Positions 7,112 through 28,784 of a stretch of 64,000 nt of DNA are shown piece by piece (within the stretch, counting starts at the first letter, position 1; the number at the start of each line of letters is the position of its first letter). The position numbers and the translations under genes are program-made. The notes beneath the pieces were generated by a model. That model worked only from the letters and a program-made list of their open reading frames with translations. It made no database searches and was not told the DNA's origin. The stretch covers positions 1,230,001 through 1,294,000 of the forward strand of contig NZ_CP125378.1 of NCBI RefSeq assembly GCF_034008635.1. Direction: 5' to 3'. Source of the DNA: Pseudomonas sp. P8_229 (GTDB lineage: Bacteria > Pseudomonadota > Gammaproteobacteria > Pseudomonadales > Pseudomonadaceae).

Positions 7112-7455
7112 AGCTTGGGTTCCTCATCTCGGACCGGATGCGGGGCTGGCGGCACGGCGTGCGGCGTCTCGCCTTCCGGGGCACGCGGGGTTGGCCAGTC
7201 GGCGAACGGCCACGGTTTCTGATCGCTGTTAAAGCTGCCGAAGCGGCCGATCTGCGCCAGGAACTGACTCAGGCTGTCGCCGAAATTCATCAGGCCGGCG
7301 CTCGGCGCGCCATAAATCAAACGATAGATCAGTTGCACCAGCACCACCGCGCCGAGGATGAACTGCGCCACTTGCCAGACCAGCACGTAGACGATCATCC
7401 ACAGCACCCGCAGGAGAATGGATTCGTACTTGGCTTCGGTTTTCGGATCGTTCAT
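7108..7455 (-). CDS. DUF4389 domain-containing membrane protein
   Basis: A 115-residue protein with two adjacent hydrophobic segments in the first 55 residues (IVYVLVWQVAQFILGAVVLVQ and the following stretch) and a proline-rich, charged C-terminal tail (about 80-115) ending in PVRDEEPKL. This fits DUF4389, a small membrane family of unknown function. It lies 18 bp after gpsA and overlaps sixA by 4 bp, so it is translated with the phosphatase gene. No catalytic motif is visible; a membrane partner or anchor role is only a guess. Confidence 0.85.
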   Translation of the reverse strand: MNDPKTEAKYESILLRVLWMIVYVLVWQVAQFILGAVVLVQLIYRLIYGAPSAGLMNFGDSLSQFLAQIGRFGSFNSDQKPWPFADWPTPRAPEGETPHAVPPAPHPVRDEEPKL

Positions 7456-7473
7456 GGCTCGCTTCCTGTTGAA

Positions 7474-8499
7474 TCAGTTGAAACCGCTGGTGGAAATAAA
7501 GTCGACGTCGGTTTTCGGCTCGGCACGCATCAGTAGACCGATCACCTGCTCCAGCGTGCGTCCTTCAAACAGAATCGCATGCAGCCCGGCGACCAGCGGC
7601 ATGTATACACCGACCTCCTGGGACTTGGCCTTGAGCACTTTCAGGGTGTTGACCCCTTCGGCGACTTCGCCCAGACGCGACACCGCTTCATCAAGGCTCA
7701 AGCCCTGACCGAGGGCAAACCCGACCTGATAGTTGCGGCTCTTCGGTGACGAGCACGTGACGATCAAATCACCGACCCCGGCCAGACCGAGGAAGGTCAT
7801 CGGGTTCGCGCCCTGATTCACCGCAAACCGGGTCATCTCGGCCAGGGCGCGGGTGATCAGCATGCTCTTGGTGTTCTCGCCCATCTCCAGCGCCACGGCC
7901 ATGCCGGCGATGATCGCGTAGACGTTTTTCAGTGCGCCGCCCAGTTCGACACCAAAGCGGTCGGCACTGGCATAGACGCGGAAGGTGCGGCCATGCAGCG
8001 CAGCCTGCACCTGCTTGCACAGGTCTTCGTCTTCGCTGGCGACCACGGTGGCGGTCAACGCGTGCTCGGCGATCTCGCGCGCCAGGTTCGGCCCGGACAG
8101 CACGCCGATGCGCGCCTGCGGGGCGATTTCTTCGAGGATCTGGCTCATCAGTTTGAAGGTGTGGGCTTCGATGCCCTTGGTCAGGCTGACGAGCATCTTG
8201 CCGCTCAGGCGCTCGGCGTGGGCGGCCAGCACTGTGCGCAGGGCGCTCGATGGCAGCGCGACGAAGCACAGCTCGCAGGCGTCGAGCGTTGCCTGCAGGT
8301 CAGTGACGGCGGTCACCCCCGGCAAAATCTTGATGCCCTTGAGGTAACGCGGGTTCTCGCGATTGACCCGGATGGCCTCGGCCTGCTCGGGGTCACGCAT
8401 CCACTGCCGGACTTGATGGCCGTTCTCGGCCAATAGATTGGCCACGGCGGTACCAAAACTTCCGCCTCCCAGGACCGCAATCGGGCGCTGTTCAGTCAT
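7474..8499 (-). CDS. gpsA: Glycerol-3-phosphate dehydrogenase [NAD(P)+]
   Basis: Reduces dihydroxyacetone phosphate to sn-glycerol 3-phosphate, the backbone precursor of phospholipids, in the cytoplasm. With the start at 8499 it has 341 residues, the normal GpsA length; a longer frame to 8577 has no family similarity. Visible features are the N-terminal dinucleotide-binding loop [10 protein letters not shown] (9-18), [21 protein letters not shown], the catalytic lysine segment GALKNVYAI, and the C-terminal [14 protein letters not shown] with RNYQVG. It is first in a unit with DUF4389 and sixA, and divergent from the TonB receptor gene. Confidence 0.97.
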
Positions 8500-8683
8500 A
8501 TGCAATCCGTTAATCCATACCAGTGGCGATGCCGGCATTATACGGGGCGACCGGGTCGCGGCCAGCCCCTGCGTCAATTACCGGCACTTGTAGGAAGAAG
8601 ACCAATAAAACCGAGGAAAATGCCCGCATCTTGACTGGAAAAGTCGCTGCCCTCGGTTAACATGCGCGCCAATTCTTTGCGAT

Positions 8684-8698
8684 CAAGGCTGTGTCGTG
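8684..8698 (+). promoter_or_regulatory. Ribosome-binding site setting a GTG start
   Basis: CAAGG at 8684-8688 stands 7 nt before GTG at 8696. No ATG exists in the receptor frame upstream, and an ATG at 8662 is in another frame, so the GTG is the best start for the TonB receptor. Confidence 0.6.
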
Positions 8699-10819
8699 TC
8701 TTTTGGTGCTCCCCCTTCGCGTTCGTCCCTGTTGCTGGCGCTGCTGTTCAGCCCGGTGTTGCAGGCGGACGACCTGTTTGTCGACGGCGAAACGCTGCCG
8801 CAGGTGCTGACGGCCACGCGCCTGAAACAGACGCCAGCGGAAGTTCCGGGGAGCATGACCGTCATCGACAGTGAATTGATCAACGCCAGTGGCGCCCGCG
8901 ACATCAGCGAACTGCTGCGCCTGGTGCCGGGGATGATGGTCGGCAACATCAGCGGCAATCAGGCCGCGGTCAACTATCACGGGACCAACGCCAGTGAAGC
9001 GCGGCGCATGCAGGTGCTGATCGATGGCCGTTCGGTGTATCGCGCAGGTCTCGCCACGGTGGACTGGAGTGATATTCCGGTGGCCATGGAAGACATCGAG
9101 CGCATCGAGGTTTTCCGTGGGCCGAACACCGTCAGCTATGGCGCCAACGCGCTGATGGCGGTGGTCAACATCATCACCCGCAACCCGGCGGACAGCCACG
9201 GCACGCGACTGAAGTACACCCGTGGCCAGCGCGGCATCAACGATTTCTATGCCAGCCAGGGCACCGGCTGGAATGGCGGCGATCTACGCCTGTCGCTGTC
9301 CGGCCTGGAAGACGATGGCTTCGACAGCGACCGCAGCGGCGCCGATTATCGCGACAGCCGCCGCTTGAACCGCTTCAGCCTCGCCGTCAGCCAGACCCTG
9401 AGCGACAACCAGAGCCTCGACTGGCAGGTCAACGCGAAGGACGGCACCAATCAGCGGCCTTACACCTACCGCCCGGTGTTCTCGGGGATTACCGCCGCCG
9501 GGAACAATTCCGACGTGGTGGCCAAGGATTACGCTGGATCGGTGCGCTGGAATCTCGACATCAATCCGCAACACAGCCTTTATATACAAGGCTCGGCCCA
9601 GCACTGGGATCGCCAGCAAGTGTGGCGCGCGTGCGATGCCGAAGTGTCGTTCAGCCCGCAGTTGACGCAACTGTGGCAACTCAACCCGAACTACACCGAG
9701 CGCCTGGCGCGCAACATCACCCGCTTCACCGGCCCCGGCGCAGCGCCCGGCACCCCGCAGGAAATGGCCCTGGCCAATCAGGTGCTGGATCAGTGGCGCA
9801 ACGGTGCCAGTCAGACCCTGTGCGGCGATATCGACCAGAGCACCCGAGAGTCGCGCTACGACCTGGAATTACAGGACACCCTCAGCCTGTCCGACAGTCT
9901 GCGACTGGTCAGCGGCATGAACTATCGTTACGACCGGGCCGATTCCGAGACCTACTTCAACGGCACGCTGGACGACACCACTTGGCGTGCGTTCGGCCAG
10001 TTGGAGTGGCGCGCCAGTGAACACTGGCTGTTGCAGGGCGGCGCAATGTTCGAAAACACCCAATTGATCGGCAGTTCGCTGACGCCCAGATTCGCGGTCA
10101 ACTACCTGATCAACCCGCGTCATGGGCTGCGCGCGGTGTACTCGGAAGCGATCCGCTCGCCGGACATGTTCGAGAACAACGTCAACTGGAGCTATCAGGT
10201 GAGCAACCTGCGGCCCTCGGCTTACGGTCAGTCTTCGGCCCGCTACTTCGTCAAGACCCGTGGCCCGGGCGATCTCGATCAGGAACACATGCGCTCGCGC
10301 GAGTTGGGCTACAACGGCTATTTCGCCGAACTGGGGCTGGCGGTCGATGTGAAGCTGTTCTACGACGAAATCACCGGGATGATCAGCGAGCCGCTACGCA
10401 ACAACCAGTACATCGCCAGCAACGCCAACAGCTCACGTTTTCGCGGCACCGAAACCCAGCTCGACTGGCGCCTGAGCCTGATCGATCGCCTGCGCTTCAC
10501 TTACGCTTTCGTCGATGCCGAGGCGAGCAATCCGCTGGATCAGCAATTCACCTCACGCAACAGCGGCTCCGCCGGTTGGTTGCGCGATTGGGGCCACGGC
10601 TGGAACAGCGCCCTCTTCTATTACGGCGACAACGCGCTCAACGGCTACCGCTTCGAGCGGGTCGATACGCGCATCGCCAAACGCATCCCTCTGGGCAAGG
10701 CTCAATTGCAACTGGCCGGCGTACTGCAACAGCGGCTCGACAACGAGCCGACCACCTTCGTCGACAACAATTACGACGAACGCCGGGTGATGTACTTCAG
10801 CGCCGAGCTGGAGTTCTAA
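8696..10819 (+). CDS. TonB-dependent outer-membrane receptor
   Basis: A 707-residue receptor starting at a GTG. It has a short signal peptide (SLLLALLFSPVLQA, cleavage near residue 23), then a plug domain: LPQVLTATRLKQTPAEVPGS, RDISELLRLVPGMMVG, VLIDGRSVYRAG and IERIEVFRGPNTVSYGANA are standard plug motifs. A roughly 500-residue beta-barrel follows and ends with the aromatic terminal strand VMYFSAELEF, as expected for BamA-assembled porins. The ligand is unknown. The next gene, a periplasmic binding protein, starts one base after the stop codon, and a hybrid sensor kinase follows with overlap, so receptor, binding protein and kinase form one operon. There is no adjacent inner-membrane ABC permease. 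Confidence 0.9.
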   Translation: MSFGAPPSRSSLLLALLFSPVLQADDLFVDGETLPQVLTATRLKQTPAEVPGSMTVIDSELINASGARDISELLRLVPGMMVGNISGNQAAVNYHGTNASEARRMQVLIDGRSVYRAGLATVDWSDIPVAMEDIERIEVFRGPNTVSYGANALMAVVNIITRNPADSHGTRLKYTRGQRGINDFYASQGTGWNGGDLRLSLSGLEDDGFDSDRSGADYRDSRRLNRFSLAVSQTLSDNQSLDWQVNAKDGTNQRPYTYRPVFSGITAAGNNSDVVAKDYAGSVRWNLDINPQHSLYIQGSAQHWDRQQVWRACDAEVSFSPQLTQLWQLNPNYTERLARNITRFTGPGAAPGTPQEMALANQVLDQWRNGASQTLCGDIDQSTRESRYDLELQDTLSLSDSLRLVSGMNYRYDRADSETYFNGTLDDTTWRAFGQLEWRASEHWLLQGGAMFENTQLIGSSLTPRFAVNYLINPRHGLRAVYSEAIRSPDMFENNVNWSYQVSNLRPSAYGQSSARYFVKTRGPGDLDQEHMRSRELGYNGYFAELGLAVDVKLFYDEITGMISEPLRNNQYIASNANSSRFRGTETQLDWRLSLIDRLRFTYAFVDAEASNPLDQQFTSRNSGSAGWLRDWGHGWNSALFYYGDNALNGYRFERVDTRIAKRIPLGKAQLQLAGVLQQRLDNEPTTFVDNNYDERRVMYFSAELEF

Positions 10820-10820
10820 G

Positions 10821-11753
10821 GTGCGCTACGGCACGGCAAACAAGACGCCAACCCTTGGCCACTGGCTGGCCGGTGTCTGTCTGTTTTTGACCGCGTGGCT
10901 GCACGGCGTCGCGGTGCAAGCCGCCGACATCCTGTTGACCGGCGCCGAAGAAAGCCCTGGGGTGCAGGCCTTCGTCGAGGCCCTGAGCGAACTGCGCCCC
11001 ACCGACAACGTGCGGTTCCAGCCACTGGCGAGCCTGCCGGCGCCGGGTAAATTGCCGAGCAATCTGCGGATGATACTGCTCGACCTGCCCAGCCTCGATT
11101 GGCGCCTTAAGGAGTCTCAGGGACCGGCGACGCTGGTGTTGCGCATCAGCCGCCTGCAGGCCCGGCAGCGCTTGGGTGCCGCGCAACCGGCGCACTTGAG
11201 TCTGCTGTGGAGCGATCCACCGCTGGGGCGGCAGCTGCAATTGATTCAGCGGATTCTGCCGCAGGCGCGGCGAGTCGGCGTGCTGTTCGATAAGCACAGC
11301 GAATTCCTGCTCAATGAGCTGCAACTGGCCGCCGCGCCGTTGCATCTGCAAATCGTCAGTCAGCGCTGGGACAACATTCAGGACAGCCGCCCGTTGCAGA
11401 CGGTACTGAAAAACAGTGACGTGCTGCTGGGCCTCGACGACCCGGACCTGTACAACCCGAAAACCGCGAAGAACCTGCTGCTCAGCAGCTATTCCCGGCA
11501 GATCGCACTGGTTGGACCGAACGCCGCGTTTGTCCGTGCCGGCAGCCTGGCCAGCACTTACAGCGATCAGCACGACTGGCTGACCATCCTCGACGAATTG
11601 CTTGACCGCCCCTCGGCCACATGGCCGCGGACGCTCTATCCCGAACGTTTTAAAGTTTCAAGTAATGCGCAGGTCGCTCGTTCCCTGGGTATCGAGCCAA
11701 TCGATGAAGCGTCTGTTGCCCGCCAGTTGGCTGAAGGAGAAAGCCACCCATGA
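10821..11753 (+). CDS. ABC-type substrate-binding-like periplasmic protein
   Basis: 310 residues from a GTG start immediately after the receptor stop. An N-terminal signal peptide runs to about residue 35 (LAGVCLFLTAWLHGVAVQA then ADILLTG). The mature part has the layout of PF04392-type binding proteins, including the ARRVGVLFDKHSEF segment and LLLSSYSRQIALVGPNAAFVRAGSLAS, where lobes usually bind a ligand. There is no permease or ATPase nearby, and its last codons overlap the start of the kinase gene (ATGA), so it most likely delivers a periplasmic signal to the kinase rather than feeding transport. Family assignment is by pattern, so moderate. Confidence 0.75.
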   Translation: MRYGTANKTPTLGHWLAGVCLFLTAWLHGVAVQAADILLTGAEESPGVQAFVEALSELRPTDNVRFQPLASLPAPGKLPSNLRMILLDLPSLDWRLKESQGPATLVLRISRLQARQRLGAAQPAHLSLLWSDPPLGRQLQLIQRILPQARRVGVLFDKHSEFLLNELQLAAAPLHLQIVSQRWDNIQDSRPLQTVLKNSDVLLGLDDPDLYNPKTAKNLLLSSYSRQIALVGPNAAFVRAGSLASTYSDQHDWLTILDELLDRPSATWPRTLYPERFKVSSNAQVARSLGIEPIDEASVARQLAEGESHP

Positions 11754-13654
11754 ATCTGCGTCGCCGCTGGGATATCAACACCCGCACGCAATTGATCAGT
11801 CTGGGCCCTGCACTGCTGCTCACGCTGCTGCTGATCAGCTTCTTTACCTTCGTGCGCATCCAGGATTTGCGTCAGGAGCTCAATCACACGGGGCAACTGA
11901 TCGCCAATCAACTGGCCCCGGCCACCGAGTACGGGGTAATTTCCGGCAACAACGACGTGCTGGAAAGCCTGCTCAAAGCCACCCTGGCCACACCGAACGT
12001 GCGTTTTATCGAAGTGCAGGACAGCGCCAACCGGATTCTGGCCTACGTTGAACAGGCCGCCGACGCGCACAACCGACCGCATCAGGTCGAAGTGTTCCAG
12101 GCCCCGGTGCGCCTGCAACGGATCGCCCTCAACAGCGACTTTTTCCACGACGCCAAAGCCAGCAACAACGTAACCAGCGAGGATTATCTGGGCCGGGTGA
12201 TCGTCGGCCTGTCCAACGATGCCTTCAGTCAGCGCCAGCAGGAAATTCTGCTCAAGGCGGGGATTCTGGCGTTGTTCGCCCTGCTCTTCACTTTTGTTCT
12301 GGCGCGACGTCTGGCCGGCAGTCTGTCGGCGCCGATCCGCGATATCGGCAACGCGGTCAAGGCGATTCAGCAAGGCGACTACAAGACCCCGCTGCCGATT
12401 GTCGATGACACCGAACTGGGCGCCCTGTCGCAGCATATCAACAACCTCGCCCAGGCACTGGAGCAGGCCAGCCGCGAACAGCATCAGGCGATGGCACAAC
12501 TGATCCAGACCCGCGAAGAAGCAGAAAAGGCCAACAACGCCAAATCCGACTTCCTGGCGATGATGAGCCACGAACTGCGCACGCCCATGAACGGCGTGCT
12601 GGGCATGTTGCAGTTGCTGGAAACCACGGACATGACCGAGGAGCAGATCGAGTATGCAGCGCTCGCTTCCGAGTCCACCGAGCATCTGCTGAAAGTCATC
12701 AACGACATTCTCGACTTCTCGCGGATCGAACGCTCGGAGCTGGAACTGGAGCACATCCCGTTCAACCTCGCCGACCTGATCGGCGCTTGCGCCCAGTCGT
12801 TCCAGCACAGTGCGGTGCAGCGTGGCCTGGCCCTGAACCTGCGGATCCCCGAGGACATGCGCGACTTGCAGGTGCAAGGCGACCCGACGCGGATCCGGCA
12901 GATTCTGGTCAACCTGGTGGGCAACGCCCTGAAGTTCACCGAGCGCGGCCGGGTCAGCATCGAGGCGCAGTGGCAGTCGCTGGATCACGAACTGCTGTGG
13001 TTCACCTGTTCGGTGCGCGACAGCGGCATTGGAATCTCGTCGGAAAGTCTGGAGTTGATGTTCGACGCGTTCCAGCAAGCCGACAGTTCGATTTCGCGCC
13101 GTTATGGTGGCACCGGGCTCGGCCTGCCGATCGCCCGCACCCTGGCCGAACGCATGGGCGGGACGTTGCGTGCGCAAAGTGAAGAAGGTCTCGGATCGGT
13201 ATTCACCCTGGAAATCCCGTTGGCTTTATATAAGCAGACGTTGCCGCAACTGGCGGCACCGCGCGCAGCCAATGGCAACGGGCATGGTGAAGGGCGCAAT
13301 GTGTTGCTGGTGGAGGACAATCCGGTCAACCAGACGGTCATCGAGGCAATGTTGCGCAGCCTGGGCTTTACTGTCAGCGTCGCCACCGATGGCGCGCAAG
13401 CGGTACGCAGCGCCGAAGGTAATGATTTCGAAGTGATTCTGATGGACTGCCGTCTGCCGATCATCGACGGCTATGAAGCGACCCGGCAGATCCGTCTGCT
13501 GCCCGGACGCAGCGAGGTGCCGATCATCGCGCTGACCGCCAACGCATTGCAGGGTGACCGCGAAACCTGCCTGTCGGCGGGCATGAACGATTATCTGGCG
13601 AAGCCGTTCAAACGCAATGACCTACAACAGATTCTGCAGCGCTGGGTGCAGTAG
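11750..13654 (+). CDS. BarA/GacS-like hybrid sensor histidine kinase (PA1611-type)
   Basis: 634 residues. Order: membrane segment at about 15-35, periplasmic sensor of the BarA/GacS type (IANQLAPATEYGVISGNND at 51-69 parallels GacS), second membrane segment at about 168-186, HAMP (190-240), dimerisation/phosphoacceptor domain with His274 in MMSHELRTPMNG, ATPase domain with GNALKF, DSGIGI and GGTGLGL, and a C-terminal receiver (about 517-634) with Asp566 and Lys618. There is no Hpt domain, so it cannot complete a four-step relay alone. It lies directly upstream of fabA, as does P. aeruginosa PA1611, which is known to bind RetS and thereby affect GacS/Rsm signalling. That identity is inferred from position and architecture. 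Confidence 0.9.
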   Translation: MNLRRRWDINTRTQLISLGPALLLTLLLISFFTFVRIQDLRQELNHTGQLIANQLAPATEYGVISGNNDVLESLLKATLATPNVRFIEVQDSANRILAYVEQAADAHNRPHQVEVFQAPVRLQRIALNSDFFHDAKASNNVTSEDYLGRVIVGLSNDAFSQRQQEILLKAGILALFALLFTFVLARRLAGSLSAPIRDIGNAVKAIQQGDYKTPLPIVDDTELGALSQHINNLAQALEQASREQHQAMAQLIQTREEAEKANNAKSDFLAMMSHELRTPMNGVLGMLQLLETTDMTEEQIEYAALASESTEHLLKVINDILDFSRIERSELELEHIPFNLADLIGACAQSFQHSAVQRGLALNLRIPEDMRDLQVQGDPTRIRQILVNLVGNALKFTERGRVSIEAQWQSLDHELLWFTCSVRDSGIGISSESLELMFDAFQQADSSISRRYGGTGLGLPIARTLAERMGGTLRAQSEEGLGSVFTLEIPLALYKQTLPQLAAPRAANGNGHGEGRNVLLVEDNPVNQTVIEAMLRSLGFTVSVATDGAQAVRSAEGNDFEVILMDCRLPIIDGYEATRQIRLLPGRSEVPIIALTANALQGDRETCLSAGMNDYLAKPFKRNDLQQILQRWVQ

Positions 13655-13752
13655 TGACGGTTTTTCGACCATCTGCGACTGGCGTGAAAAGCGAAAGTGC
13701 GGCAGTCTTAGGCACCCGAACAAGCCGCAAAACGGGCTTGAATAAAAATTTC

Positions 13753-13770
13753 AGTGCACAAGTGTACATT
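13753..13770. promoter_or_regulatory. Imperfect palindrome upstream of fabA, candidate operator
   Basis: AGTGCACAAGTGTACATT is an 18-bp imperfect inverted repeat (outer 8 bp match at 6 of 8 positions) 132 bp upstream of the fabA start. In P. aeruginosa the TetR-family regulator DesT binds a palindrome in the fabAB promoter; this site is a candidate for that or a similar regulator. I cannot confirm a match to the published site. Confidence 0.45.
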
Positions 13771-13901
13771 CATGTCCTTGGTGCTGTGACTTTCACCACA
13801 ACGCAATAGTCTATGAGTAGGCTGCCGATTCGAGGCATGAACGCGTCGATCGGTCGGGAAGATTTGCCCCACCTGCCGCATGGGATTATTGAGGAGCTCG
13901 C

Positions 13902-14417
13902 ATGACCAAACAAAACGCCTTTACTCGGGAAGATCTGCTGCGCTGCAGTCGCGGTGAGCTGTTCGGCCCAGGTAACGCGCAACTGCCCGCCCCGAACATG
14001 CTGATGGTGGATCGCATCACCCTGATCAGTGAAGAAGGCGGCAAGTACGGCAAAGGTGAATTGGTCGCCGAGCTGGATATCAACCCTGATCTGTGGTTCT
14101 TCGCGTGCCACTTCGAAGGCGATCCGGTGATGCCGGGCTGCCTGGGTCTGGACGCCATGTGGCAACTGGTCGGCTTCTTCCTGGGCTGGCAAGGCCTGCC
14201 GGGCCGTGGCCGTGCGCTGGGTTCGGGCGAAGTGAAATTCTTCGGCCAGGTCCTGCCGACCGCCAAGAAAGTCACCTACAACATTCATATCAAACGCGTC
14301 CTCAAGGGCAAGCTGAACCTGGCCATCGCCGATGGTTCGGTGACTGTCGACGGTCGCGAAATCTACACCGCCGAAGGCCTTCGCGTCGGCGTGTTCACCT
14401 CCACTGACAACTTCTAA
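13902..14417 (+). CDS. fabA: 3-hydroxydecanoyl-ACP dehydratase/isomerase
   Basis: Dehydrates (R)-3-hydroxydecanoyl-ACP and isomerises trans-2- to cis-3-decenoyl-ACP, the branch point of anaerobic unsaturated fatty acid synthesis. It is the usual 171 residues. The active-site helix region [20 protein letters not shown] carries the catalytic histidine (His71) and aspartate (Asp85). The ribosome site GAGGAG precedes the ATG by 6-7 nt. fabB follows after 11 bp, the conserved Pseudomonas fabAB operon, which ends at the terminator near 15700. A candidate operator lies at 13753-13770. Confidence 0.98.
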
Positions 14418-14428
14418 GGGTTATTCGC

Positions 14429-15649
14429 ATGCGCCGCGTCGTTATCACTGGTCTGGGCATTGTTTCGTGCCTGGGCAATGACAAAGAGACCGTCTCCGCT
14501 AACCTGCGTGCAAGCCGCCCTGGCATCCGGTTCAACCCGGAATATGCTGAAATGGGTCTGCGTAGCCAGGTTTCCGGCTCCATCGACCTCAACCTTGAAG
14601 AACTGATCGATCGCAAGATCTATCGTTTCGTCGGCCACGCAGCGGCTTACGCCTACCTGGCCATGAAAGACGCCATCGCTGACTCCGGCCTGACCGAAGA
14701 GCAAGTGTCCAACCCGCGTACCGGCCTGGTGGCTGGCTCCGGTGGTGCTTCCACGCTGAACCAGATGGAAGCGCTGGACATCCTGCGCGAGAAAGGCGTG
14801 AAACGCGTTGGCCCATACCGTGTAACGCGGACCATGAGCAGCACGGTTTCCGCTTGCCTGGCCACGCCATTCAAGATCAAAGGCCTGAACTACTCCATCG
14901 CTTCTGCCTGCGCCACCAGTGCTCACTGCATCGGTACCGCCATGGAACAGATCCAGATGGGCAAGCAGGACATCGTCTTCGCCGGTGGCGGTGAAGAAGA
15001 GCACTGGAGCCAGTCGTTCCTGTTCGACGCCATGGGCGCTCTGTCCAGCAAGCGTAACGACACCCCGGAACAAGCCTCCCGTGCCTACGACAAAGACCGT
15101 GACGGTTTCGTTATCGCTGGCGGTGGCGGTATGGTCGTGGTTGAAGAGCTGGAACACGCTCTGGCCCGTGGCGCCAAGATCTACGCTGAAATCGTTGGCT
15201 ACGGCGCAACGTCCGATGGCTACGACATGGTTGCCCCGAGTGGCGAAGGCGCGATCCGCTGCATGCAGATGGCAATGTCCACCGTCGACACCCCGATCGA
15301 CTACCTGAACACCCACGGCACCTCGACTCCGGTCGGCGACGTTGCGGAAATGAAAGGTGTGCGTGAAGTGTTCGGCGACAAGGCGCCAGCGATCAGCTCG
15401 ACCAAGAGCCTGTCCGGCCACTCCCTGGGCGCCGCCGGCGTTCACGAAGCGATCTACTGCATGCTGATGATGGAAGGCAACTTCATTGCCGGTTCCGCCA
15501 ACATCGACGAGCTGGACCCTGAAGTGGCCGATCTGCCGGTGCTGACCAAGACCCGCGAAAACGCCACCATCAACACTGTGATGAGCAACAGCTTCGGCTT
15601 CGGCGGCACTAACGCCACGCTGGTACTGAAGCGCTGGGAAGGCAAGTAA
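14429..15649 (+). CDS. fabB: Beta-ketoacyl-ACP synthase I
   Basis: Condensing enzyme that elongates cis-3-decenoyl-ACP made by FabA. 406 residues, the normal KAS I length. The catalytic triad is visible: nucleophilic cysteine in [14 protein letters not shown], histidine in [11 protein letters not shown], and histidine in [16 protein letters not shown]; the C-terminal [15 protein letters not shown] closes the active site. Spacing to fabA is 11 bp with no promoter between. A strong intrinsic terminator follows 28 bp after the stop codon. Confidence 0.98.
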
Positions 15650-25811: not shown

Positions 25812-26019
25812 GAGTATCTGCAAGTAATTCTCAGTTGAGAGCGATTATTCAAGATTGCCCGTCATCGGGCAACCCAAGGTTGACCGGCCGGACAAACGAG
25901 CCTGCCCCCGCCGACCGATGCCGAGATGATTTTTCCGAAGATTGCCTGCCTGCAAATCGCTACACTGCGCCCATACCGCGTGCCGGACGCACGTGCGAGT
26001 CAACAGTTCAGCGGGATGC

Positions 26020-26030
26020 AGGAGATGGGT

Positions 26031-26033
<3 letters not shown>
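26020..26033 (+). promoter_or_regulatory. Ribosome-binding site fixing the gacS start at GTG
   Basis: AGGAG (26020-26024) lies 6 nt before GTG at 26031. The ATG codons at 26016 and 26025 sit on or too near this site. Using the GTG gives phosphorelay residues His294, Asp717 and His863, the established GacS numbering. Confidence 0.85.

Positions 26034-28784
<2,751 letters not shown>

What the first reader, a model, noticed from the sequence alone, without database searches (positions are those of the whole stretch)
8696..13654. Receptor, binding protein and PA1611-like kinase in one operon: possible outer-membrane input to the Gac/RetS network
A TonB-dependent receptor, an ABC-type binding protein (1-bp gap) and a BarA-type hybrid kinase (4-bp overlap) are cotranscribed directly upstream of fabAB. 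No ABC permease is present, so the binding protein probably senses rather than transports. The kinase looks like P. aeruginosa PA1611 (from memory, also next to fabA), which binds RetS and so relieves GacS. If so, a specific outer-membrane ligand could control the Gac/Rsm cascade through this trio.
Basis: partly seen in the sequence, partly recalled or inferred. Interest (0 to 1): 0.7.

Follow-up and report, generated by a model that had tools for sequence, protein, structure and literature searches.

The report
Outer-membrane receptor to kinase relay
Three adjacent Pseudomonas genes (an outer-membrane receptor, a periplasmic binding protein and a membrane kinase) belong to a gene set found together in many other bacteria, probably a relay that carries an outside signal to the cell interior, so the unknown input of a well-studied lifestyle-control kinase becomes testable.

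Summary
The trio is real: TonB-dependent receptor (TBDR) 8696-10819, ABC_sub_bind-like binding protein (BP) 10821-11753, hybrid kinase 11750-13654, between gpsA and fabAB. The kinase is the PA1611 ortholog (receiver 72% identical to the crystallised PA1611 receiver; next best hybrid here 52%). The arrangement reaches far beyond Pseudomonas: of 119 BP loci from order and class surveys with adequate flanks, 99 have both a TBDR and a protein with the same sCache_4-type sensor nearby; none shows an ABC ATPase motif nearby. Outputs vary (hybrid kinases, GGDEF-EAL, GGDEF) while TBDR, BP and sensor persist, so these look like one input module. In 149 genus genomes losses are nested: TBDR 99, BP 110 (one a remnant), kinase 148. 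Kinases without BP keep HELRTP but decay at one sensor motif (EYGVISGN, residues 60-67). The RetS exit is not general: RetS is in 149/149 genus genomes whatever the trio's state, and in 20 of 79 BP-bearing genomes of the order; HptB is an equal candidate. Binding was not shown, coevolution was inconclusive, the motif-BP link does not reach significance on the tree, and the ligand is unknown.

The parts
8696..10819 (+). TonB-dependent receptor (position of PA1613): Plug and barrel, no STN signalling domain found
   Evidence: ORF; Pfam Plug 8.1e-24 and TonB_dep_Rec 1.9e-26; PDB relatives colicin I receptor, BtuB
10821..11753 (+). Periplasmic ABC_sub_bind-like binding protein (position of PA1612), two-lobed, no permease or ATPase beside it
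11750..13654 (+). Hybrid histidine kinase, PA1611 ortholog: sCache_4-type periplasmic sensor, HAMP, HisKA, HATPase, REC, no Hpt found
11846..12247 (+). Periplasmic sensor domain of the kinase (residues about 33-166), homologous to the GacS periplasmic detector domain
11927..11950 (+). EYGVISGN motif (kinase residues 60-67), at the end of the long first helix; kept with the BP, mostly decayed where the BP is lost
13301..13636 (+). Receiver domain of the kinase, 86 of 119 residues identical to PA1611REC (PDB 7c1j/7cfw)
   Evidence: PDB entries assigned in PMC7467158 (table passage)
7474..8577 (-). gpsA, divergent upstream neighbour that anchors the locus in the genus
13902..14417 (+). fabA, downstream neighbour
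   Evidence: TIGR01749 above cut-off
14429..15649 (+). fabB, downstream neighbour
   Evidence: NF005935 above cut-off

Best explanation
The three genes form one signalling relay across the envelope. The TonB-dependent receptor takes up a specific ligand from outside; the binding protein captures it in the periplasm; the liganded (or empty) binding protein docks on the kinase's sCache_4-type sensor, probably at the membrane-distal EYGVxSGN tip, and so shifts the kinase between states. In Pseudomonas the kinase then acts through what is known for PA1611: its receiver exchanges phosphate with HptB and its kinase part binds RetS, so a surface ligand tunes the Gac/Rsm and HptB networks. Shown here: gene order, family identities, class-wide persistence of TBDR, BP and sensor with exchangeable outputs, nested loss in the genus, local decay of the motif after BP loss. 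Inferred: uptake by the TBDR, BP-sensor contact and its site, direction of the switch. From literature on PA1611: the RetS and HptB steps.
For: (1): in 119 loci found by the BP alone with usable flanks (74 of 79 order loci; 45 of 46 class loci with BP profile >=110 bits), a TBDR is near in 109, a protein bearing the same sensor in 109, both in 99, an ABC ATPase motif in 0; a 4-bp overlap of BP and sensor gene occurs in 52 of the 112 loci with BP >=110 bits and a sensor hit. Of 14 weakly related BPs (<110 bits) 1 has both and 5 have an ABC ATPase motif. (3) Output change with the same sensor: a GGDEF protein adjoins the BP in 3 of 45 class loci and 28 of 71 named loci (27 of the 28 carry the sensor hit in the same frame); sensor-profile E-values 9.6e-32 to 2e-34 for L224, L226, L231, the profile having been built from order-level kinases. 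(4) Nested losses in 149 genus genomes: TBDR 99, BP 110, kinase 148; TBDR without BP 0, BP without kinase 0. (5) Pattern EYG[VI][LIV][SA]GN in 18 of 18 trio, 7 of 9 BP-only and 6 of 39 kinase-only kinases, all 66 keeping HELRTP; at 7 motif positions 185 of 189 residues kept with BP against 191 of 266 without, at 22 other conserved positions 586 of 594 against 823 of 836. (6) Fold: BP nearest to Trp- and Phe-bound binding proteins; LuxP in its LuxQ complex also matches (1zhh, E 1.3e-4).
Against: No contact between BP and sensor was shown. Residue couplings between BP and sensor were hardly stronger than between BP and the cytoplasmic kinase core (7 against 3 of the top 10, 104 against 96 of the top 200), so they mostly reflect common descent. 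On the tree the BP-motif association rests on 6-8 changes; in independent pairs the motif goes the same way in 3.7 of 6, the other way in 0.1, sign test median p 0.125. The motif pattern was set after seeing the sequences; a looser one (E,Y and G,N) is kept in 15 of 39 kinase-only kinases. No BP-kinase fusion in the loci scanned. In 8 order genomes of one group (g28), in L037 and in L244, TBDR and BP stand without a sensor gene nearby, and 10 of the 119 loci have the sensor but no TBDR nearby. The ligand is unknown; no Fur box in the window and no Rfam match at 7400-14500.
Confidence: 0.62

Rival explanations
1. The TBDR and BP are an uptake route whose cargo the sCache sensor binds directly; the BP merely delivers or concentrates the ligand, or passes it to an ABC permease encoded elsewhere.
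For: Single- and double-cache domains with bound small ligands (CitA, DctB, PctA type) are among the fold matches; genomes with the kinase but no BP exist (38 of 148).
Against: No ABC ATPase motif near any of 119 BP loci; BP and sensor genes often overlap by 4 bp; the decay after BP loss is at the helix tip, not at the other conserved sensor positions examined.
Confidence: 0.2
2. The kinase regulates the receptor and BP genes (as hybrid kinases do at Bacteroides SusCD loci, recalled), and the shared operon serves uptake rather than sensing.
For: Response-regulator genes stand next to several class-level trios (L213, L229, L233, L240, L268; LuxR type confirmed by Pfam for L213 and L229).
Against: No response regulator lies in the Pseudomonas locus, and GGDEF-type outputs replace the kinase in 3 of 45 class and 28 of 71 named loci, which are not transcription regulators.
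Confidence: 0.1
3. Classical cell-surface signalling: the TBDR itself contacts an inner-membrane partner through an N-terminal signalling domain, as FecA does.
For: It is a TBDR in a signalling operon.
Against: No STN domain in the receptor and no sigma or anti-sigma factor among the six proteins tested.
Confidence: 0.03
4. The proximity is an ancient operon of convenience with no common function.
For: Operons can persist by drift or co-regulation.
Against: Persistence in 99 of 119 loci in varied surroundings, nested losses, output exchange and local motif decay.
Confidence: 0.05

Closest known systems
PA1613-PA1612-PA1611 of Pseudomonas aeruginosa
   Same: Same kinase by receiver identity and fabA synteny; PA1612-PA1611 operon upstream of fabA (PMC3462791 passages); PA1613 is treated among iron-acquisition proteins (PMC9864456, one passage)
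   Different: PA1611 is studied for RetS and HptB; the searches showed no paper tying it in function to PA1612 or PA1613. No P. aeruginosa genome was identified by name here
LuxP-LuxQ of Vibrio
   Same: Type I periplasmic binding protein with a hybrid kinase; LuxP in the LuxP:LuxQ entry 1zhh is among the fold matches (E 1.3e-4)
   Different: No TBDR (recalled); LuxQ's sensor is of another arrangement (recalled); the BP family differs
Solute-binding proteins near sensor kinases AgtS and AruS of P. aeruginosa
   Same: Binding protein encoded beside a sensor kinase (PMC11113362, abstract)
   Different: GABA- and 5-aminovalerate-binding proteins; no outer-membrane receptor mentioned in what I saw
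GacS/BarA sensor family
   Same: Homologous sCache_4 sensor; class-level trio kinases are BarA-like, with Hpt in the one checked by Pfam (L209)
   Different: gacS here has no BP or TBDR match beside it in what I examined and reads APAMGHGN where the trio kinase reads EYGVISGN; the window kinase lacks Hpt and scores 467 against a BarA cut-off of 890
FecA-type cell-surface signalling
   Same: A TBDR starts a signal
   Different: No STN domain, FecR or ECF sigma found; a soluble binding protein and a kinase or cyclase take their place

Membership tests
PA1611 orthologs | Receiver closer to PA1611REC than that of other hybrids in the genome | tested here: met
   72% over 119 aa; best of the ten other hybrids found with the BarA profile at E<=1e-40 is 52%; sole PDB sequence hit at E<=1e-30
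PA1611 orthologs | Gene next to fabA | tested here: met
   PA1611-fabA neighbours in PMC3462791
PA1611 orthologs | HAMP-HisKA-HATPase-REC, no Hpt | tested here: met
   for the window kinase; for PA1611 itself recalled
PA1611 orthologs | Binds RetS and exchanges phosphate with HptB | not testable with these tools
   RetS-type (L152) and HptB-type (L168) genes are present in this genome
ABC_sub_bind binding proteins (PF04392) | Pfam match above the gathering score | tested here: not met
   no match for the window protein; 4 of 10 distant relatives are above it; 3 of the 120 listed homologs carry it
ABC_sub_bind binding proteins (PF04392) | Same two-lobe fold | tested here: met
ABC_sub_bind binding proteins (PF04392) | Partner permease and ATPase nearby | tested here: not met
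   0 of 119 loci with an ABC ATPase motif within 2.5 kb; 5 of 14 weak relatives have one; permeases were not searched as such
LuxPQ-like binding protein-kinase pairs | Binding protein docks on the kinase's periplasmic domain | not testable with these tools
FecA-type transducers | N-terminal STN signalling domain | tested here: not met
   only Plug and barrel found at E<=0.001
GacS/BarA | sCache_4 periplasmic sensor | tested here: met
   PF09984 6.4e-8, partial; hhalign of the sensor alignment to GacS E 2.8e-23
GacS/BarA | BarA equivalog score and C-terminal Hpt | tested here: not met
   466.6 against 890 bits; no Hpt. GacS of this genome itself scores 837

The most novel reading that the evidence does not exclude
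TBDR + ABC_sub_bind-like protein + sCache_4 sensor is an undescribed, class-wide envelope signalling module (Gammaproteobacteria in the GTDB sense, with Burkholderiales) that plugs one outer-membrane input into interchangeable outputs (hybrid kinases, c-di-GMP enzymes); PA1613-PA1612-PA1611 is its Pseudomonas member, and the GacS/BarA sensor is a relative that lost the binding-protein partner, so long-sought Gac-type signals may enter through binding proteins.
Probability: 0.45. Interest if true: 0.85.

Novelty: new variant of a known kind. Interest (0 to 1): 0.75.

Why it matters
The signal read by PA1611 is, as far as I found, unknown, although the kinase acts on RetS/GacS and HptB. If the trio is one module, its two upstream genes are the missing input, and a ligand can be sought by ordinary binding screens of the BP. 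The same module, with c-di-GMP or two-component outputs, stands in many little-studied bacteria, so one worked example would annotate many. It would be another way, beside FecA-type signalling and SusCD-linked kinases (both recalled), for an outer-membrane receptor to report to the cytoplasm. PA1613 is listed among genes mutated in parallel (6 of 10 sub-lineages, as I read the table passage) in chronic-infection lineages (PMC4199492), which fits but does not prove a role.

Tried and rejected
Coevolution: 209 BP-sensor pairs gave 92 inter-protein pairs among the top 200 couplings against 7 (sd 2, 12 shuffles) after shuffling within 40 clusters, but a control with the cytoplasmic kinase core of 175 loci was nearly equal (104 sensor, 96 core of the top 200), so this is not used as support.

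FecA-like signalling: rejected (no STN). Iron or cobalamin control as a clue to the ligand: no Fur box with up to 3 mismatches in the window (consensus recalled), no Rfam match at E<=1 in 7400-14500. Permease search with PF06541 in the own genome: none, but that family was recalled as the partner and is probably the wrong one, so it is not counted. BP fused to kinase, sensor or TBDR: none in the loci scanned. TOL_0244/OmpS (receptors linked to alkanes, PMC6304351 passages): the window TBDR matches that profile at 160 bits against a cut-off of 645, a relative at 153, so membership is not claimed. MxaY of methanotrophs as a functional example: the passages of PMC5018670 that I saw do not describe its neighbours; dropped. 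The GacS periplasmic structure 5o7j is only a weak Foldseek match (rank 25, E 0.49) although the sequence profiles agree. LuxQ is not among the listed sensor matches.

Literature: the searches showed me no description of the trio as a signalling unit; they cover open-licence PMC papers and I saw ranked listings with starts of abstracts. Papers opened: PMC3462791, PMC9864456, PMC4199492, PMC4866733, PMC8175716, PMC10805632, PMC5018670, PMC12997753, PMC11113362, PMC10728633, PMC5595915, PMC7695008, PMC6304351 (passages only); PMC7467158 (outline, abstract, one table passage). Kong 2013 (PA1611-RetS) was seen only as cited.

Limits of counts: the >=110-bit class cut and the motif pattern were chosen after looking. 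5 of the 119 usable loci are from the window's own family; without them 94 of 114 have both partners. Dropped for short flanks: 5 of 79 order loci, 1 of 46 strong class loci, 9 of 80 named loci. The 60 class loci were picked by me from the list, mostly best-scoring places on long contigs plus about 20 weaker ones; they are not a random draw. The named set repeats at least four class loci (equal contig lengths: L284, L290, L295, L301) and many of its members are of a few genera. ABC ATPases, GGDEF and HisKA were recognised by motif patterns, so misses are possible; the HisKA pattern missed HDLRQP-type kinases (seen, one checked). In one search, 39 sensor positions met the 50% cut: 7 in the motif, 22 counted, 10 left out by hand (31, 44, 59, 83, 87, 119, 120, 129, 173, 184), most of them because the genus itself differs from the distant consensus there; position 119 (23 of 27, 33 of 38) could as well have been counted.
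Full report

Identity of the kinase. Its receiver is identical to the crystallised PA1611 receiver at 86 of 119 residues (PDB codes from a table passage of PMC7467158). Against the ten other hybrid kinases found in this genome with the BarA profile at E<=1e-40 the PA1611 receiver's best match is 52%, a SagS-like protein. By domain content GacS is L150, RetS L152 and LadS L159 (the names rest on architecture as I recall it). gacS lies in this same window at 25926-28784.

Genus survey. In 149 genomes drawn evenly from the genus: kinase in 148 at E<=1e-130, BP in 110 at E<=1e-10, one of them a 105-residue remnant in G302, TBDR in 99 at E<=1e-60. The sets are nested without exception. All 38 kinase-only loci and the remnant locus were fetched. 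Of the 20 drawn out gene by gene, 18 show gpsA upstream of the kinase with only short frames between, one of these being the remnant locus (L112 and L121 show no gpsA match in the printed stretch); the other 19 show no TBDR or BP match in their fetched stretches. Of the 11 genomes with BP but no TBDR, one is the remnant genome, one (G292, BP at a contig edge) was not fetched, and nine were read; three of these keep receptor fragments (L133, L134, L136). So the receptor tends to go first, then the BP, while the kinase stays: the order expected if each upstream part is useless without the one below it. RetS is in 149 of 149, so it does not track the trio.

Order and class surveys. A BP search found matches in 79 of 244 order genomes; a profile search found matches in 105 of 369 class genomes, the weaker ones probably ordinary transporters. 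Neighbourhoods were read for 79 order loci (78 genomes other than the window's own) and 60 class loci. Counts: order loci with usable flanks 74: TBDR 71, sensor protein 65, both 62; class loci with BP >=110 bits and usable flanks 45: TBDR 38, sensor 44, both 37; ABC ATPase motif 0 in both sets. The 14 weak class relatives serve as contrast: TBDR 1, sensor 4, both 1, ABC ATPase 5, GGDEF neighbour 6. A scan of named genomes with a class-level BP alignment kept 80 loci (Undibacterium, Methylotenera, Curvibacter, Limnohabitans, Denitromonas, Aromatoleum, Sulfuricella, Chromatiales and others); 71 usable: TBDR 64, sensor 69, both 62, GGDEF neighbour 28, ABC ATPase 0. At least four of these repeat class loci.

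Exchangeable outputs. The sensor profile was built from the kinases of the order loci and the window, yet it finds the sensor in PAS-GGDEF-EAL proteins (L224, L226, L231), GGDEF proteins of about 441 aa (Undibacterium; L315), hybrid kinases with an HDLRQP motif (L277, L343), a BarA-like kinase with Hpt (L209) and a kinase without HisKA match that looks NarX-like, next to a response regulator (L246) (Pfam for L231, L315, L277, L209, L246). In two genomes of one family the trio's kinase has lost its phospho-acceptor His and its receiver (L048, L056; L048), which recalls the statement that PA1611's interaction with RetS does not need its phosphorelay residues (PMC4866733 passage). Keeping TBDR, BP and sensor while the output changes is the strongest sign that these three are one input unit.

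A natural experiment on the sensor. In the genus the pattern EYG[VI][LIV][SA]GN (kinase residues 60-67) is present in 18 of 18 trio kinases sampled (15 of the 99 genus genomes plus 3 of another genus of the family), 7 of 9 BP-only kinases and 6 of 39 kinase-only kinases, one of these six being the genome with the BP remnant; a looser criterion (E,Y and G,N) gives 18 of 18, 8 of 9 and 15 of 39. All 66 kinases keep HELRTP. Taking instead the 39 sensor positions conserved at 50% or more in 118 distant BP-linked sensors, those that fall under 70% in kinase-only kinases while staying at 80% or more in BP-linked ones are Y61 and S65 (25 and 11 of 38); G66 and N67 fall to 27 of 38, E60 to 32 of 38. 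Over the 7 motif positions 191 of 266 residues are kept against 185 of 189 with BP; over 22 other positions 823 of 836 against 586 of 594. The Fisher p-value printed there ignores descent. On a quick tree of the cytoplasmic part BP presence changes at least 8 times (6 forced by well-supported branches); in independent pairs the motif follows it in 3.7 of 6, opposes it in 0.1 and does not differ in 2.3, median p 0.125, and so few events cannot reach significance. In the model the motif ends the long first helix (residues 2-47 of the modelled segment), some 25 residues beyond the expected end of TM1, a natural place for a docking partner; this placement is inference. The GacS sensor is homologous but reads APAMGHGN at this place.

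Exit of the signal. HptB-like proteins (E<=1e-8) are found in 44 of 79 BP-bearing order genomes and RetS-like kinases (E<=1e-120) in 20 of 79; outside the window's family 33 of 73 have neither. The module therefore does not depend on RetS. In Pseudomonas both exits are present, and literature supports both for PA1611: RetS interaction (PMC4866733 passages; Kong 2013 not read) and HptB (PMC7467158 abstract). PA1611 deletion did not change fabA expression (PMC3462791 passages), so the fabAB neighbourhood is probably not the output.

Judgement. What is missing is any direct evidence of binding and any ligand.

Noticed in passing
window 25926-28784: gacS (952 aa: sCache_4, HAMP, HisKA, HATPase, REC, Hpt) lies about 12 kb downstream of the PA1611-like kinase, with ORFs that look by eye like mazG and relA between: two kinases of one network in one neighbourhood.
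   Followed up: partly
L048:4472-5953 (-) and L056:4434-5948 (-): Trio kinases of one family (f20) that lost the phospho-acceptor His (SDELRTP, RQELNTP) and the receiver but keep sensor, TBDR and BP.
   Followed up: partly
L075, L077, L079, L091, L096, L102, L107, L108: Eight genomes of group g28 have TBDR and BP, with a gene that looks by eye like prephenate dehydratase upstream (read in L079), but no kinase next door; where the signal would go is open.
   Followed up: no
L036, L038, L042, L047: Two tandem binding proteins between receptor and kinase, possibly two ligands for one sensor.
   Followed up: no
L213, L229, L233, L240, L268: Response regulators encoded beside class-level trios (LuxR type by Pfam in L213 and L229), candidate direct outputs.
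   Followed up: partly
L251-L256: More distant ABC_sub_bind-like proteins upstream of proteins with GGDEF and EAL motifs, without a TBDR nearby: a possible shorter version of the module.
   Followed up: no
G283 (genus sample): One genus genome lacks kinase, BP and TBDR at the thresholds used but has RetS.
   Followed up: no
PA1613 in a table of PMC4199492: The P. aeruginosa receptor gene is listed among genes mutated in parallel in chronic-infection sub-lineages (passage).
   Followed up: no
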